A stretch of DNA of 64,000 nt from Pelagicoccus sp. SDUM812005. GTDB taxonomy: Bacteria > Verrucomicrobiota > Verrucomicrobiia > Opitutales > Opitutaceae. Below are positions 48,005 through 54,646 of the stretch, piece after piece. Made by a program: the position numbers and the translations under genes. The first letter of the stretch is position 1; every line of letters begins with the position of its first letter. Where the stretch lies: the NCBI RefSeq assembly GCF_031127875.1, contig NZ_JARXIA010000001.1, positions 372,001 through 436,000 of the forward strand. The letters are read 5' to 3'. The notes beneath the pieces were generated by a model that saw nothing but the letters and a program-made list of their open reading frames with translations, had not been told where the DNA came from and did no database searches.

Positions 48005-51000
48005 TTAGAACGAGAATGTATTGGTGATCTTCCAGACGGTTCCTTCCGGGATGCGAACCGTTGCTGGGCTGCCGTCGGGCTGGACCGTGATCGGAATGAG
48101 GTCGTCGCTGGCGAAGAGGTTCCTTACGTTCAGCTGGATGTTCCAATCGATGCGATCGTTTAGCGGACGGCTGTAGCCGACCCACATGTCGATGTTGTCC
48201 TCGGCAGGTCCGACGAAGGGGTTGTCTAGGTCGAAGGCGCGTGGATCGTCGATGGTGGCACCGGGCAGGATGGGGTAGCCGACGACCTGACCGTCCTGCC
48301 AGCGGTAGGCGCCGCCTACATTGAGTCCGGAGAAGGTGCCGTCGGAGAAGGAGTAGTTCGTGATGAGGTTGAAGCGCCACGGGCGGAGCTCCGGCACGTT
48401 GGCGCCTTCTTGCATGCGGTAGAGCCAGTAGCCTGACATGTACTCGCGGGTGAACTTGCCCAGTAGCGATTCGTTCGGGCTGTAGCTGCCGTTCCAGAAG
48501 CGAACGTCGCCCACGACTCCGACTTGCTCGCCGTCGAGAGTGACGGGCGAGTTGTAGACTGCCCAGCGGGCTTCGGTCCATTCGACGAGGGAGCCTGCCA
48601 TATTGGTGCGTTCCGCGGTGGTCTTGGATGCGTTGGCGGAGATGTTCCAGTTTTTGACTGGCTGGGCGGCGAGTTCGAACTCGATGCCTTCCGAGCGAGT
48701 GTCGCCCGAGACGGTGAAGCCGTTTGGAATGGTGCCCCAGATGAAGTTTCCTTGGTCTGCGGAGGCGATGTCGATGCCCCAGAGATCGTACCAGGAGTCG
48801 GGGAGGCGCGTATCCATGTAGGCTTGGGTGATCGCGTCGCCGACGGCTTGGGCGTAGGCGATTTGCTCGTCGCTCCAACCGTCTTCGGGCGTGCTGTCGG
48901 CAGCGATGCCGAGTGGATCGTAGCCTTCACGGAAGTCGGCCCAGCCGCCTACGTTCGCCCGGAGCAGGTTGCCGCGTCCGAAGCCGTATGCCCAGGCCTC
49001 GGCGCCCCAGATCATGTAGGCTCCGCCGAAGCTGTCCAAGCTCGCGTCCGAGACCTTGGTTTCGTACCAGGTGGTGCGCAGGGAGAGCTTGTCTTCAAAC
49101 ATGGATACGCGGAAACCGTAGTCCTTGGTGGTGCCTTTCGGCGAGGCGATGGAGTTGCCGTAGACATCGATGCGGCCGGCGGATGGCTGGAAGTTTTCCG
49201 ACTCGTTGTAGAAGAGGGAAACGTTGGCTCCGCCTGGGAGACGGTCGCGCCAAGCTTGGGGCGTGTGCACGACGAGACTGTAGCTGCGGCTGTAGTCGGA
49301 GTCTACGTTGTTCGGCTCCCTGGGGAGGGCGTAGTCGGCGCTTTCCAGATCGATCGTATCGCTTCCGTCACTACGCTTGGGCAGTTCGCCGCCGCCTTTG
49401 GAGAAGGCGGATTGTTCGTCGTGGCGCACGCCAATGCTGGGAACGACCAGCCCGTCGAACATGTAGCCTTGCCAGTTCATGGCCCAAGACTCGGTCTTGG
49501 TTTTCTGAAGGGAGGCGTTGGTGGTGAGCAGGTCGCGGTCGCCCTCGGCGTCGCTGATGAGGTTGAGCGCGTAGTCGGCTCCGTTCCAACCGACGTAGTT
49601 GGCTGGGTTCATGGCTTGGGTGGACTCGTCGCCGTATTGGTCGATCCAGACGTCGTCTGGCGAGGCGGATGAGTTCCAAGTGGTATTGAACACGGGGAGG
49701 TTGCCGTCGCGGGGGATTTGGGTCGCGTAGAGGCGGCCGATGTTGGCTCCGGAGAGGCGGGAGCGGTTGGAGATGTCGTCCGAGAGGTAGGTCAGCACGT
49801 TAACGGTGCGGTTTCTCAGGGCGGTGTCGTCGTTGAAGGTGACGCCGTAGGAGAGCGGCGCGGCGTAGCGGAACCAGCTTCGGTCTTCCCATTCGTGGGT
49901 TTCGTTGCTGAGGAGGCCGGTGAAGACGTGGCGGCCTACGATTTCGCCGAGTTTGTTGTCGCCGAAGATGTCGCGTCCTTCCAGTTCCGCGAAGGCGGTG
50001 AGGCGTTCGGCGTCCCGCTTGGAGACGTAGCTATTGTTGGAGAACTGGTCGGATATCATAGCGGCTCGCCCGTAGTTCGGGTTGACGGATCCGTCGACGA
50101 GGTGGTTGTTCAGGTCGATGGTGATCGCTTGTCCGAAGTCGGAGGTGAGGTTGGTCTGGCCGCGCTCCAGGTTTTCGCGATAGACGGCCGCTTCCAGGCC
50201 GAGCTTGTTGTCGAGGAAGGTTTGGGAGAGGTTCGCGTTGAGCACGTCGAAGTCCGACCACTCTTCCTTGTTCGGTCCGTCGATCAGCTTGTTGCGGAAG
50301 TCGAAGATGGAGGTGTCGAGCAGGCGCTCGTCCTTGTAGAAGTCGTAGTTTTCGCTGGTTTGCAGCGTTCCTTCCAAGTCTTTGCGAGCGATGACGCCGG
50401 ACATGATGGTCCAGGGAAGCGACACGGTGGAAGTGACGTTCTTGGAGATGTCGGTGGTGATCAGCCGATGCTCGGAGCTGGTCGGGTCGTCGAAGACGGC
50501 TACGATGCCGCCGTAGTTACGTCCGAAGGCTCCGATCGCCTGGTTAAAGTAGTTCGAGTTGCTGCCGCGCACACCGGCTCCGAGATCGCCCGCGGCGCGC
50601 AGGGCCTCGATAGTGGGACCGTCGCTTTCGCCGAGGGTTAAGGGATTGATGCCTCCGGCTTGGCGAATGGCAGCTAGCTCGCTATTGGTCCACCAGGGCG
50701 TGATGAGGTCGCCTGGAGGTAGGATGCGGGGACGGTTGGCTTCGATGCTGCCGTTCTCGAACTTTACGTTCAGCTGGGTGCTGGCGCTGTCGGTCTTGAG
50801 GAATTGCGGCTCGTAGCGCAGGGCGGTGAAGAGTCGCTTGTCTTCGTTGAAGGCCGGGCGTTGCTGGTACTTCGTATTGTCGTTTAGGACGGCGACGCGG
50901 AAGGAGAGCTCGTCCTCGATGAGGGTTATGTTCTTGTCGGCGGAGAAGCGCAGGCTTCCGTAGCTGCCGAAGCCGAGGGATACTTTTCCGTCGTCTCCGA

Positions 51001-51574
51001 AGTGGGCTCCGTTGACCGAGGCGTTGATGATGCCGGCAGGGGCGCCGATGCCGAAGAGAATGGCGTTGGGGCCGCGTTGGAGGTCGACGCGACCGACGTT
51101 GTAGGAATCCCAGGGAACTCCGGTGAGGAAGAAGTCGCGCGTATTGTCGGCCTGGCTGAGGCCGCGGACGCGGGTGCTTTCGTGCGGAGCCATGCGTTGG
51201 TTCGTGTCGTCAAGGGCGTTGCCGTTGCCGAGACCCGCGAAGTTGCCTCCGACGCCGGATACTTCAGTGTTGGTGGTGTACTGGAGCAGGGTTTCGTTGT
51301 TGGTGGCTCCGGTATCCTTGAGGAAGTCTTCGGTTATGACGCTGATGGCGGAACCGACGTCCTTGAGGTCGGTGCGAATACGGCTGCCAGCTAGGGTCGA
51401 AGTGGCCCTATAGCCGCTCGAGTCCTCGGAGGTAACCTCGAAGGGGGAGAGCTCGAAGACTTCCTCCTCTTCGTCGTTTTGGGAGAAGCCGCTCGTGGCC
51501 GCTAGGGAGAGGGCGCTGGTCAGGAGGAAGAGCCCGCTGAGCCTTCTCCTTGGGTAGTGTGTAGGTTTTGTCAT
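48005..51574 (-). CDS. TonB-dependent receptor (large, Opitutae type)
   Basis: Outer-membrane transporter of 1,189 residues. An N-terminal signal peptide (LFLLTSALSLAATSGF, cleavage near FSQ) is followed by an acidic NDEEEE stretch, the TonB-box-like ELSPFEVTS segment, and the plug domain (LAGSRIRTDLKDVGSAISVI, then GVPWDSYNVGRVDLQRGPNAILFG). The rest is the beta-barrel ending in an aromatic ITNTFSF. The length and the N-terminal style fit the very large TonB-dependent receptors common in Opitutae, often for polysaccharide fragments, but the substrate is unknown. The long 5' region (51575-51962) is empty. A two-component pair is convergent with it. Confidence 0.92.
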   Translation of the reverse strand: MTKPTHYPRRRLSGLFLLTSALSLAATSGFSQNDEEEEVFELSPFEVTSEDSSGYRATSTLAGSRIRTDLKDVGSAISVITEDFLKDTGATNNETLLQYTTNTEVSGVGGNFAGLGNGNALDDTNQRMAPHESTRVRGLSQADNTRDFFLTGVPWDSYNVGRVDLQRGPNAILFGIGAPAGIINASVNGAHFGDDGKVSLGFGSYGSLRFSADKNITLIEDELSFRVAVLNDNTKYQQRPAFNEDKRLFTALRYEPQFLKTDSASTQLNVKFENGSIEANRPRILPPGDLITPWWTNSELAAIRQAGGINPLTLGESDGPTIEALRAAGDLGAGVRGSNSNYFNQAIGAFGRNYGGIVAVFDDPTSSEHRLITTDISKNVTSTVSLPWTIMSGVIARKDLEGTLQTSENYDFYKDERLLDTSIFDFRNKLIDGPNKEEWSDFDVLNANLSQTFLDNKLGLEAAVYRENLERGQTNLTSDFGQAITIDLNNHLVDGSVNPNYGRAAMISDQFSNNSYVSKRDAERLTAFAELEGRDIFGDNKLGEIVGRHVFTGLLSNETHEWEDRSWFRYAAPLSYGVTFNDDTALRNRTVNVLTYLSDDISNRSRLSGANIGRLYATQIPRDGNLPVFNTTWNSSASPDDVWIDQYGDESTQAMNPANYVGWNGADYALNLISDAEGDRDLLTTNASLQKTKTESWAMNWQGYMFDGLVVPSIGVRHDEQSAFSKGGGELPKRSDGSDTIDLESADYALPREPNNVDSDYSRSYSLVVHTPQAWRDRLPGGANVSLFYNESENFQPSAGRIDVYGNSIASPKGTTKDYGFRVSMFEDKLSLRTTWYETKVSDASLDSFGGAYMIWGAEAWAYGFGRGNLLRANVGGWADFREGYDPLGIAADSTPEDGWSDEQIAYAQAVGDAITQAYMDTRLPDSWYDLWGIDIASADQGNFIWGTIPNGFTVSGDTRSEGIEFELAAQPVKNWNISANASKTTAERTNMAGSLVEWTEARWAVYNSPVTLDGEQVGVVGDVRFWNGSYSPNESLLGKFTREYMSGYWLYRMQEGANVPELRPWRFNLITNYSFSDGTFSGLNVGGAYRWQDGQVVGYPILPGATIDDPRAFDLDNPFVGPAEDNIDMWVGYSRPLNDRIDWNIQLNVRNLFASDDLIPITVQPDGSPATVRIPEGTVWKITNTFSF

Positions 51575-51962
51575 GTTCGAATCGCTTGGTTTGATCGGGG
51601 TTGTTTTTTGTTTCCGGGTTTGAACTGGATTTTGCTAGGCGCCGCATTGTGAATCGGCCGCCGAACTCCAGGCGGGAAAGGGTTGAGACGGCAAAGAATC
51701 TAAAAGATAGAACGTTAAATCAAATAACTCGGGTAAGTTGGGTAGTGGATTTGGGGGAAGGCATAGCTCGACTGTCGGGAAGCTATCTAGAGGGGTCGTT
51801 GGAAGTGTCGATGGGAGGGGCAAACCTCATGATGCATCGTTAAATCTAGGAGCCGAGGAAAGCCCCTCCTGTCAATTCAAATTGCGAGTCCCACTTGGTT
51901 GAAAGGGACGCGGCTGTGGGTCGACGCCGCAGTGGCGTTCGGAAGTTGAGGGGGCGGCGCGG
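51575..51962. other. Intergenic region upstream of the TonB receptor
   Basis: About 390 bases between the receptor start and the end of the TPR gene. The part from about 51690 to 51740 is AT-rich and could hold the receptor promoter. No conserved ORF, tRNA or clear riboswitch-like structure is visible; the short frames here have no recognisable features. Confidence 0.5.
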
Positions 51963-53369
51963 CTAGGGGTTTTGGCGAAAACTTTGTCGAAAGGATTGCT
52001 CTAGAATTTCCAGGTCCTCGAGGGAGCGGTTCGGATGATCCTGCAGTTCGCGAATCCGCTTCCGCGCTTCGGTTCGCCGCTTTTGTGAGATTGCGATTTT
52101 AGCCAGCATAACGAGGGGATCCGGGTGGGAAGGTTCCGCTTTGAGGGCGGCGGTGGCTTCTTGGTTTGCCATTGCGAGGTAGCCTTGCATGAGGGCAATC
52201 ATCGACAGTTGTATATAGGAGCGCGCTTCGTTGGGTTGGAGCCTTTTGGCGTGCTGGAATTCCGTCTTCGCTTTTTCGTAGAGCCCGATCATGGCGTAGC
52301 GTTTTCCGTTTCCGAAGTGGACGTATCCAGAATCAGGGCACGAGATTAGAGCTTGGTCGATGGCTCGGGAGAGCTCGCTGTAGTTTTGCTCTTCCATAAG
52401 AAGATGGATGAGAGCGGCCCAGGATTCGGAATCGCGCGGCGCGAGCGAAGTCGCCTGTTGGTAGTAGGCTTTGGCAGCGGCGAGCTTGCCTTCGCTTTGG
52501 TAGAGCGTTCCCAGTTGTTTCAGGTAGGCGCTAGAGTTGGGGGCGAGTTCGATCGCTCTTTCCAGCAGTCTTTGGGCGGAGGTGGGATCGTTCGATGTCG
52601 CCGCAGCGACGCTCAGTTGGTAAGGATCGTAGCAATGGGAGTCGATTTCCTCGAGGTAGGGATCCGGTATCGGAATCTGTTTTCCGAAGGAGCGCGTCCT
52701 GGCAATTTCCGCGAGTTCGCTTTGCTGCAAGTGTTCGAGAACCGTGGTGAGCAAGGCCCATCCGGCGCGGAATCCTGGATCTATGGATACGGATTTCTCG
52801 AACTTGGAGAGGGCATCTTGCCAGTTTTCTTCGTGGATGTCGCAACGGGCTAGGCCGAGTAGCGCATGCGTGCTTGGGGGGGCGGTGGCGGCTGCTTTCT
52901 GGAACGTTTCTTTGGCTAGGTCGTAGCGGTTCAGTTTCAGCTGCAACTCTCCCAGCTTGAGCAGTGGCGCGAGGGGGGCGCTGGCTTTGCTGGCGGCGAG
53001 GGCTTGCAGCTCGTGGGCTTCACGCAACTGGCCGAAGCCAGCGAGCAAGCTTGCGAGGAGATGGGGCCAGGCGGGCTGGTCGGGATCTCGTTCCATTAGT
53101 CGACGGTAGGCCTGCATGGCTTTGGACGGTTCGCCATTGGCATGGTAGAGCTTAGCGAGCCTCTCCAAGGCTTGCCGGTCTCCCGCTTCGGATTGCGAAA
53201 GGGCTTTCTCGACCTCGGTCTGGTAGATTGCGGAAGGGTCGCGGGGTTCGGTCTGGAGCGCGGCATTGCTGTCCTCGTGGGGCGCCTTGCCGCAGGCTGC
53301 CAAGGCGAAGCCAAGGAGGAGCTTGGCAAGAAGGGAAACGATTGGTCGGAAATTGCTCATGGGAATCAT
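51963..53369 (-). CDS. TPR lipoprotein of unknown function
   Basis: A 468-residue protein with a lipoprotein signal peptide (MSNFRPIVSLLAKLLLGFALAAC; lipobox LAAC, Cys near 26). The mature part is nearly all tetratricopeptide repeats: SQSEAGDRQALERLAKLYHANGEPSKAMQAYRRL, then SAYLKQLGTLYQSEGKLAAAKAYYQQA and the later FGNGKRYAMIGLYEKAKTEFQ. It is probably anchored to the outer or inner membrane facing the periplasm. Its start ATG overlaps the FG-GAP stop (ATGA), indicating translational coupling; FG-GAP and TPR partners are often combined in Verrucomicrobia and Planctomycetes. Confidence 0.85.
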   Translation of the reverse strand: MIPMSNFRPIVSLLAKLLLGFALAACGKAPHEDSNAALQTEPRDPSAIYQTEVEKALSQSEAGDRQALERLAKLYHANGEPSKAMQAYRRLMERDPDQPAWPHLLASLLAGFGQLREAHELQALAASKASAPLAPLLKLGELQLKLNRYDLAKETFQKAAATAPPSTHALLGLARCDIHEENWQDALSKFEKSVSIDPGFRAGWALLTTVLEHLQQSELAEIARTRSFGKQIPIPDPYLEEIDSHCYDPYQLSVAAATSNDPTSAQRLLERAIELAPNSSAYLKQLGTLYQSEGKLAAAKAYYQQATSLAPRDSESWAALIHLLMEEQNYSELSRAIDQALISCPDSGYVHFGNGKRYAMIGLYEKAKTEFQHAKRLQPNEARSYIQLSMIALMQGYLAMANQEATAALKAEPSHPDPLVMLAKIAISQKRRTEARKRIRELQDHPNRSLEDLEILEQSFRQSFRQNP

Positions 53370-54421
53370 CGTTTGCTCCAGATGCGAACGCGACTCATCG
53401 TGCCCCAGGGTGGATAGGCGTGGAATCCCCCGGTCACGATTTCCGGGAAGGCGTCGCCCTCGAAGTTCGCAACGCTTGCGCTTACCAGGTGAGTCGGAAT
53501 CGAGGCGAGCGGGATTTCTTCGAACTCTTCGTCTCCATTATTCAAATACGCGACCAGTGAGTACGCTTCAGCTTTGCTCCATTCGTTGAAGCCGCTGACT
53601 GCGATTATGTCCACGTCTCCATCGAGGTCCAGGTCGATCCCGACAGGGCTGTAGGCTCCAGGCAAGTCGGCAACGCGGTGGTAGGTGAACTGGGCTTGTC
53701 CGTCGTTCTCCAACCACTGTACGCCGTGCCAAGGGCGAGCTCCGGGCTCGGCGTAGTCGAAACCGTCCCCGTTGGTATAGAGAATGTCGTAGTCGCCATC
53801 CTGGTCGAGGTCGCAAAGGCTGATCCCGCTGCTGCCGAAGTCTTCGTTGGTCGAGCCGAAGACGATCCGATCCGAGAAGTTTCCTTCGCCATCGTTTTCG
53901 AAGAGGTGGATCTCCTCGTATTGCTGCGAGACGATCGCGACGATGTCTAAGGAGCCGTTGCCGTTTAGGTCCTCGACGGCGACGTTGACGGTTCCTGGCA
54001 GACGAGAGAGGGTGTGGCTTTGGAAGGTCCAGCCGCCTTGGTTTTCCAGCCATGCGATTTCGCCTTGCTGGTATCCAAATTTCGCTACGGCTATGTCGAG
54101 TCGCCCGTCTCCGTTGAAATCGCCCGCCCTAAGGTCAGTTACGCGGTAAGTGTCGCTGACGATTTCATGTGAAACGTAGCGTTCTGCTCCGGTATTTTCC
54201 AGCACGTTGACGGAACCGATCAGGTCGTTGTTGGGGAAGACTTGGCCCATGCAGGCAAGAAGTATATCGAGGTCGCCGTCTTGATCGATGTCTACGGTTT
54301 CGGAGTGCACCGGAGCGGGAAGCTGGTCGGCGAGGATGCGTTCTTCGTATCGAGAGCTCGTCGATTGGCGTATCCAACTTAGGGAGTTGGATTGCGCGTC
54401 GCAGACCAGCACGTCCATCAA
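53366..54421 (-). CDS. FG-GAP/VCBS repeat protein, main part
   Basis: At least seven FG-GAP/VCBS-type repeats, each ending in a calcium-binding-like D-x-D-G-D-x-D loop (DIDQDGDLDILLA, DFNGDGRLDIAVA, DLNGNGSLDIVAI, DLDQDGDYDILYT, DLDLDGDVDIIAV and so on). These form beta-propellers on the outside of cells or in the periplasm. As an isolated frame it would start at a TTG or ATG in mid-repeat and have no signal peptide. The same frame continues upstream, past one TAG at 54533-54535, to a full lipoprotein signal peptide (see the fragment at 54533-54646). Its TGA overlaps the ATG of the TPR lipoprotein. Confidence 0.8.
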   Translation of the reverse strand: MMDVLVCDAQSNSLSWIRQSTSSRYEERILADQLPAPVHSETVDIDQDGDLDILLACMGQVFPNNDLIGSVNVLENTGAERYVSHEIVSDTYRVTDLRAGDFNGDGRLDIAVAKFGYQQGEIAWLENQGGWTFQSHTLSRLPGTVNVAVEDLNGNGSLDIVAIVSQQYEEIHLFENDGEGNFSDRIVFGSTNEDFGSSGISLCDLDQDGDYDILYTNGDGFDYAEPGARPWHGVQWLENDGQAQFTYHRVADLPGAYSPVGIDLDLDGDVDIIAVSGFNEWSKAEAYSLVAYLNNGDEEFEEIPLASIPTHLVSASVANFEGDAFPEIVTGGFHAYPPWGTMSRVRIWSKR

Positions 54422-54532
54422 GCCGTCGGCATCGAGGTCGACGGCTTTGACGTGGGTAATCCAAGGGCGAGCGCTGGCGGGTGTTCCGATCTCGGCGCTC
54501 GAATAGGCGAGGGAGGGCGGCGCGTTATTGAT

Positions 54533-54646
54533 CTATTCCGTTTCGCTGCCGCTGGGCTCGCGACCGCAGGCGGCTAGGAAGATAAGGAGCGGCAGCGCGA
54601 GCAGGCTGCGGCTTGCGCGGATTCTCGTGGGGCGGGGCTGAGGCAT
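54533..54646 (-). pseudogene. Lipoprotein signal-peptide fragment ending at an in-frame TAG, 5' part of the FG-GAP gene
   Basis: ATG at 54646 opens a 37-residue peptide with a typical lipoprotein signal: basic start (RPTRIRASR), hydrophobic LLALPLLIFL, and lipobox LAAC with Cys27, ending at TAG (54533-54535). The frame is exactly that of the FG-GAP repeats: codons 39-75 after the TAG are open and include a FG-GAP-like motif (HVKAVDLDADG). The pair therefore reads as one lipoprotein gene broken by a single amber codon, or read through at it. A base substitution, a sequencing error or true recoding are all possible. Confidence 0.78.

What the first reader, a model, noticed from the sequence alone, without database searches (positions are those of the whole stretch)
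53366..54646. Lipoprotein signal peptide separated from an FG-GAP protein by one in-frame TAG
ATG at 54646 opens a 37-codon lipoprotein signal (LPLLIFLAAC, Cys27). A TAG at 54533-54535 ends it, yet codons 39-76 continue in the same frame with no other stop and include an FG-GAP motif (HVKAVDLDADG) just before the TTG at 54421. The FG-GAP body alone would lack any export signal, which makes no sense for a beta-propeller of this kind. So this is either a fresh nonsense mutation (pseudogene), a sequencing error, or read-through of the amber. TAG is used as an ordinary stop by neighbouring genes (rpmF, hrpB, the M29 aminopeptidase), so genome-wide reassignment is unlikely.
Basis: partly seen in the sequence, partly recalled or inferred. 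Interest (0 to 1): 0.72.

Follow-up and report, generated by a model that had tools for sequence, protein, structure and literature searches.

The report
Lipoprotein gene broken by one stop
One copy of a common exported propeller-protein gene in a marine-type bacterium carries a single stop codon just after its export signal, which is most simply a recent, ordinary gene-breaking mutation (or an assembly error) rather than a new decoding trick.

Summary
On the minus strand ATG 54646 opens a 37-codon lipoprotein signal, TAG stands at 54533-54535, and the frame runs on for 388 codons to TGA 53366-53368. The body is an FG-GAP beta-propeller. Of 99 distinct family members compared, the window included, 95 have a start and a hydrophobic export segment in one frame with the body. 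The three other exceptions are a shifted frame, a lost 5' end and unread bases. The closest orthologue (69%, same genus, beside the same TonB-receptor and TPR genes in another order) is continuous. RF1 is present and none of 44 tRNAs found reads TAG. TAG is the commonest stop in 0.86 Mb sampled and shows no more coding sequence behind it than TAA. The body keeps 64 of 65 near-invariant positions, so the lesion, if real, is young. Best reading: recent nonsense mutation in one of five paralogues; main rival: sequencing or assembly error. Functional read-through is not excluded but has no positive support. Ordinary; low interest.

The parts
54536..54646 (-). 37-codon opening: lipoprotein signal peptide with lipobox LAAC (Cys27), start ATG 54646
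   Evidence: lipobox recognised by eye; homologues carry comparable signals in one frame with the body
54533..54535 (-). in-frame TAG (codon 38), in the poorly conserved linker between lipobox and propeller
   Evidence: none of the other 98 distinct members compared has a signal parted from the body by an in-frame TAG
53366..54532 (-). 388-codon FG-GAP beta-propeller body plus stop TGA; no ATG/GTG/TTG before TTG 54421
   Evidence: FG-GAP_3 E 9.7e-45; pLDDT 91
51963..53369 (-). intact TPR lipoprotein gene, overlapping the FG-GAP stop by 4 bases (ATGA); frequent partner of the family
   Evidence: a TPR homologue lies downstream in 59 of 78 testable loci
48005..51574 (-). TonB-dependent receptor beside it (77% identical to the one beside the G005 orthologue)

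Best explanation
This is one of five FG-GAP propeller paralogues in a Pelagicoccus-like genome. It was a lipoprotein gene, exported and lipid-anchored at Cys27, and has been broken by a single recent nonsense mutation in the linker just after the signal. Translation from 54646 should now end after 37 codons. The propeller is then not made, or at most is made at low level from an internal start, without export signal and with a damaged first blade. Shown: the TAG, the continuous homologues, the intact body. Inferred: that the base is real, that the product is lost, that the overlapping TPR gene downstream is translated less, and that the other paralogues make the loss tolerable.
For: A start and an export segment lie in one frame with the body in 95 of 99 distinct members, including the 69% identical orthologue of G005, which stands beside the same TPR and TonB-receptor genes. 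Four more near-full-length copies without inner stops are in the same genome. Other copies of the family are broken in other ways: G002:C71 has frame changes and inner stops; in L140 the signal lies in another frame than the body. The RNA around the TAG is not unusually structured (z -0.61). No TAG-reading tRNA found, RF1 present, coding-like sequence behind TAG no more often than behind TAA (40 of 250 against 24 of 164; TGA 8 of 127). The body keeps 64 of 65 positions conserved in 95% of the others, as expected of a young lesion: the chance of no further stop is 0.68 at 1% neutral divergence and 0.02 at 10% (transitions weighted fourfold).
Against: The body shows no other lesion, so nothing independent of the TAG marks it as a pseudogene, and the partner TPR gene is open. 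At the looser 90% threshold the body departs at 5 of 98 positions (family median 3, rank 74 of 98), and it is slightly faster than its orthologue (mean 28.7 against 23.3 unique changes; chi2 over 3.84 with 13 of 96 non-independent outgroups): weak signs of relaxation at most. No second genome of the same species was available, so a single-base error cannot be excluded. TAG is followed by coding-like sequence more often than TGA (16% against 6%). The tRNA list is not complete: only 150 of 182 candidates were scored, and no tRNA-Ala with anticodon TGC was seen.
Confidence: 0.72

Rival explanations
1. Sequencing or assembly error (or a minority-strain base in a mixed assembly): the real gene is continuous and intact.
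For: Only one codon need be wrong; the rest of the gene is pristine, with 64 of 65 near-invariant positions kept and no other stop. The region occurs once in the genome; the assembly has 118 contigs and a contamination estimate of 1.39.
Against: The site lies well inside a 959 kb contig. Substitution errors in deep assemblies are rare (general knowledge, not tested). No reads were available.
Confidence: 0.17
2. Low-level read-through of the amber by near-cognate tRNAs leaves a functional, down-regulated lipoprotein, as Belinky et al. 2021 propose for many in-frame stops.
For: Body intact and conserved; pN/pS against the orthologue 0.26, though synonymous sites are saturated and this mostly reflects time before the lesion. 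PMC7918605 (abstract and section 2.1 seen) reports in-frame stops in genes with dN/dS below 1.
Against: The TAG is not shared by any of the other 98 distinct members compared; no TAG-reading tRNA found; no excess of coding sequence behind TAG over TAA in 0.86 Mb; no unusual RNA structure. The same paper finds that in-frame stops tend to persist for a short time only.
Confidence: 0.07
3. Reinitiation or an internal start (ATC 54532, TTG 54421, ATG 54418) gives a cytoplasmic propeller with a new role.
For: TTG 54421 and ATG 54418 are in frame and the body is intact.
Against: Starting at 54421 or 54418 removes the first conserved PW and DLDxDG segment; 95 of 99 distinct members have an export segment.
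Confidence: 0.03
4. TAG is reassigned or suppressed throughout this organism.
For: None beyond the site itself.
Against: RF1 at 480 bits, cut-off 423; no CTA anticodon in the 44 tRNAs found; PylS family below cut-off; TAG ends 257 of 553 gene calls.
Confidence: 0.01

Closest known systems
Recent bacterial pseudogenes with a nonsense mutation
   Same: Single in-frame stop, otherwise intact body, continuous homologues, several paralogues in the genome
   Different: No second lesion yet; loss of product not shown
In-frame stop codons in bacterial genes (Belinky et al. 2021, PMC7918605; abstract and section 2.1 seen)
   Same: In-frame TAG in a gene whose body is conserved
   Different: That study focuses on stops shared by orthologues of two or more species; here the TAG is private to one genome among those compared
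CRTAC1 and integrin-alpha FG-GAP propellers (best Foldseek match PDB 9etn_A)
   Same: FG-GAP propeller fold, TM-score 0.70 normalised to the query; FG-GAP_3 and FG-GAP Pfam matches
   Different: 15% identity to CRTAC1; a bacterial exported family, often followed by a TPR gene; no NCBIfam model over its cut-off

Membership tests
FG-GAP beta-propeller family | FG-GAP repeats above Pfam cut-off, and propeller fold | tested here: met
   PF13517 151.4 bits, cut-off 26.9; model pLDDT 91; CRTAC1 and integrin matches
Bacterial lipoprotein | type II signal with lipobox in frame with the mature protein | tested here: not met
   Signal present by eye, but the TAG parts it from the body. Of 95 continuous members, 53 have a lipobox-like motif and all 95 a hydrophobic segment
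Pseudogene by nonsense mutation | stop absent from orthologues, gene otherwise homologous over its length | tested here: met
Pseudogene by nonsense mutation | no functional full-length product | not testable with these tools
   Needs protein data
Pseudogene by nonsense mutation | the base is real and not an error | not testable with these tools
   Needs reads or a second isolate
Programmed or conserved stop-codon read-through | stop conserved at the same place among relatives | tested here: not met
   Not in any of the other 98 distinct members: 95 have continuous frames, 3 exceptions were read singly
Programmed or conserved stop-codon read-through | recoding structure or TAG-reading tRNA | tested here: not met
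   Fold z -0.61; no CTA anticodon in the 44 tRNAs found, list not complete
TAG-reassigned code | RF1 lost or TAG avoided as terminator, TAG-reading tRNA | tested here: not met

The most novel reading that the evidence does not exclude
The amber is a tolerated attenuator: near-cognate read-through yields a small share of full-length exported lipoprotein, so that one paralogue is throttled at the decoding step while its TPR partner is made from its own start.
Probability: 0.06. Interest if true: 0.45.

Novelty: new member of a known kind. Interest (0 to 1): 0.13.

Why it matters
It matters mainly for annotation. A gene caller would drop the signal peptide and call a 351-residue protein from TTG 54421 (the frame listed), missing that the gene is a broken lipoprotein gene. 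It is also a worked example of how homologues, tRNA content, RF1 and stop usage separate a private nonsense codon from recoding.

Tried and rejected
Genome-wide reassignment: rejected. Programmed read-through: I looked for a conserved TAG and an RNA structure and found neither. A recurring signal-TAG-body design: L140, L104 and L159 looked similar at first, and in L140 and L159 the nearest upstream in-frame stop is indeed a TAG. Read singly, L140 has its signal in another frame, L104 has lost the first 35 residues, and L159 lies behind unread bases with no signal seen in its frame; none is a signal parted from the body by a TAG in one frame. A second copy of the region in the same genome: none beyond a 38-base match. 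dN/dS: synonymous sites saturated (pS 0.765), so it dates nothing. A first count of extensions behind stops used frames by length alone, many of them plainly spurious antisense frames, and was replaced by the codon-scored count; that one still holds some spurious frames, and many of its coding-like extensions look like the next gene in the same frame. The hydrophobicity threshold (12-residue mean of 1.8 or more) was set after seeing the table. A first script read minus-strand loci in the wrong direction and was redone.

Limits of the lists: one search scored at most 7 candidates per genome and gave loci for the best places only; one search kept the best 80 of 194 relatives. The 99 are therefore the better-matching part of the family, not all of it; weak matches (L006-L008, L026-L037) were left out. 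Literature: one search on stop read-through and pseudogenes (listing; PMC7918605 abstract and section 2.1 seen), one on FG-GAP, Verrucomicrobia and lipoprotein (listing, one paper, not read).

Full report
Observation. The minus strand reads ATG 54646, 37 codons ending in a lipoprotein-type signal and a short linker, TAG 54533-54535, then 388 codons without a stop to TGA 53366-53368. The first start codon after the TAG is TTG 54421, followed at once by ATG 54418. The finding's coordinates and motif (HVKAVDLDADG) are exact. The interval between TAG and TTG is part of the conserved domain: it holds PW and DLDxDG, which are invariant or nearly so in a 27-row alignment. Its codon score is the highest of 281 comparable intervals in 0.86 Mb of this genome. 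A real gene is therefore interrupted.

What the body is. Pfam gives FG-GAP_3 (E 9.7e-45) and FG-GAP. A third match, to a TcdB_toxin_midN model exactly at its cut-off (24.8 bits), covers 44 residues of the first repeat region; I take it as cross-matching of FG-GAP repeats (inference). No NCBIfam model reaches its cut-off. AlphaFold with 27 rows gives an all-beta model, mean pLDDT 91. Foldseek puts murine CRTAC1 first (E 2.4e-13, TM 0.70 by query) and several integrin alpha chains among the first 50.

Where it lies. The own genome has 6.65 Mb in 118 contigs; the window is part of a 959 kb contig. Two contigs of same-genus genomes agree in length and about in match position with named records: G002:C71 (883,453 bases) with NZ_JARXHX010000001.1 of Pelagicoccus sp. 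SDUM812002, and G004:C104 (101,748 bases) with JANQRJ010000003.1 of a Pelagicoccus MAG. I infer a Pelagicoccus or near relative; the record itself is unnamed. In the direction of transcription the gene is followed by a TPR lipoprotein gene with a 4-base overlap and then by a TonB-dependent receptor. In G005 homologues of the three lie side by side with identities of 69.8, 49 and 77%, but the receptor comes first there, and no other gene of the 19 kb fetched has its counterpart in the window (a second receptor there matches the same window receptor at 39%). So the neighbourhood is shared only as a module. A TPR homologue lies within 1.7 kb downstream on the same strand in 59 of the 78 loci that hold 1.2 kb or more there, out of 80 fetched.

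Relatives. The own genome holds five near-full-length copies, the other four without inner stops. In 252 genomes of the family, 69 have a match at E 1e-100 or better. From the loci given I compared 125 plus the window: 126 sequences, 99 distinct by their last 250 residues. Of these, 95 have a start codon and a hydrophobic segment in one frame with the body, 53 of them with a lipobox-like motif. The four exceptions are the window; L104, which has lost its 5' end; L140, whose signal lies in another frame; and L159, which follows unread bases. In L140 and L159 the nearest upstream in-frame stop happens to be TAG, but in neither does a signal precede it in the same frame. A further copy in G002 is broken by frame changes and stops. 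The family thus seems to lose copies now and then by different routes; assembly errors may account for some.

Age and state of the body. Of 65 positions conserved in at least 95% of the other members, the window keeps 64 (rank 38 of 98 by departures; L104 left out of this alignment). At 90% it departs at 5 of 98 (median 3, rank 74 of 98). Relative-rate counts against G005 are 28.7 and 23.3 on average, with chi2 over 3.84 for 13 of 96 outgroups, which are not independent. pN/pS against G005 is 0.26, but synonymous sites are saturated. Under neutral decay the chance of no further stop in the body is 0.68 at 1% divergence, 0.15 at 5% and 0.02 at 10%. So the TAG is young, or an error, or tolerated.

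Decoding. RF1 is present over its cut-off (480 bits). The 44 tRNAs found by Rfam were given anticodons by ARAGORN, and none is CTA; the list is not complete, since 150 of 182 candidates were scored and no Ala-TGC was seen. PylS matches are below cut-off, as in 13 of 14 control genomes. In 0.864 Mb (40 stretches plus the window), 553 codon-scored gene calls end in TAG 257, TAA 169 and TGA 127 times. A coding-like extension follows in 40 of 250, 24 of 164 and 8 of 127 of those whose extension ends within the stretch (12 left out), so TAG behaves like TAA, while TGA has fewer. The RNA around the TAG is not unusually structured (z -0.61). I found no general or local device for reading the TAG.

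Conclusion. A private, recent nonsense mutation in one of several paralogues is the best reading (0.72). An error of sequence is the main rival (0.17) and can be settled only with reads or a second isolate. Low-level read-through of the sort proposed by Belinky et al. (PMC7918605; abstract and section 2.1 seen) is possible (0.07); that paper itself finds that in-frame stops tend to persist only for a short time. The case is ordinary.

Noticed in passing
window 48005-54646 and L038 5382-11850: TonB receptor, FG-GAP propeller and TPR gene stand together in both genomes, in different order; a TPR homologue follows the propeller gene in 59 of 78 loci, and genomes of the genus carry one to several copies of the propeller. 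One literature listing gave a single paper, not read.
   Followed up: partly
L233 1493-2489 (G002:C71): Degraded copy of the same family with frame changes and inner stops in a congener.
   Followed up: partly
L140 2868-3001 (OX638348.1): A signal peptide with lipobox lies in a different frame from the propeller body: decay or an indel error of the assembly.
   Followed up: partly
L104 / L133, upstream of the match: Propeller body without its first 35 residues; upstream lies unrelated sequence with a terminator-like hairpin seen by eye: 5' loss or misjoin.
   Followed up: no
L136, L152, L154, L159, L162, L163, L165-L167, L170, L171, L173, L174, L183, L188: Relatives at about 48-55% identity occur in MAGs labelled Desulfobacteraceae, Deltaproteobacteria, Bacteroidia/Bacteroidales and Planctomycetota: wider spread, transfer or binning errors.
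   Followed up: no
own genome G000, tRNA set: No tRNA-Ala with anticodon TGC among the 44 tRNAs found, probably a gap of the draft or an unscored candidate.
   Followed up: no
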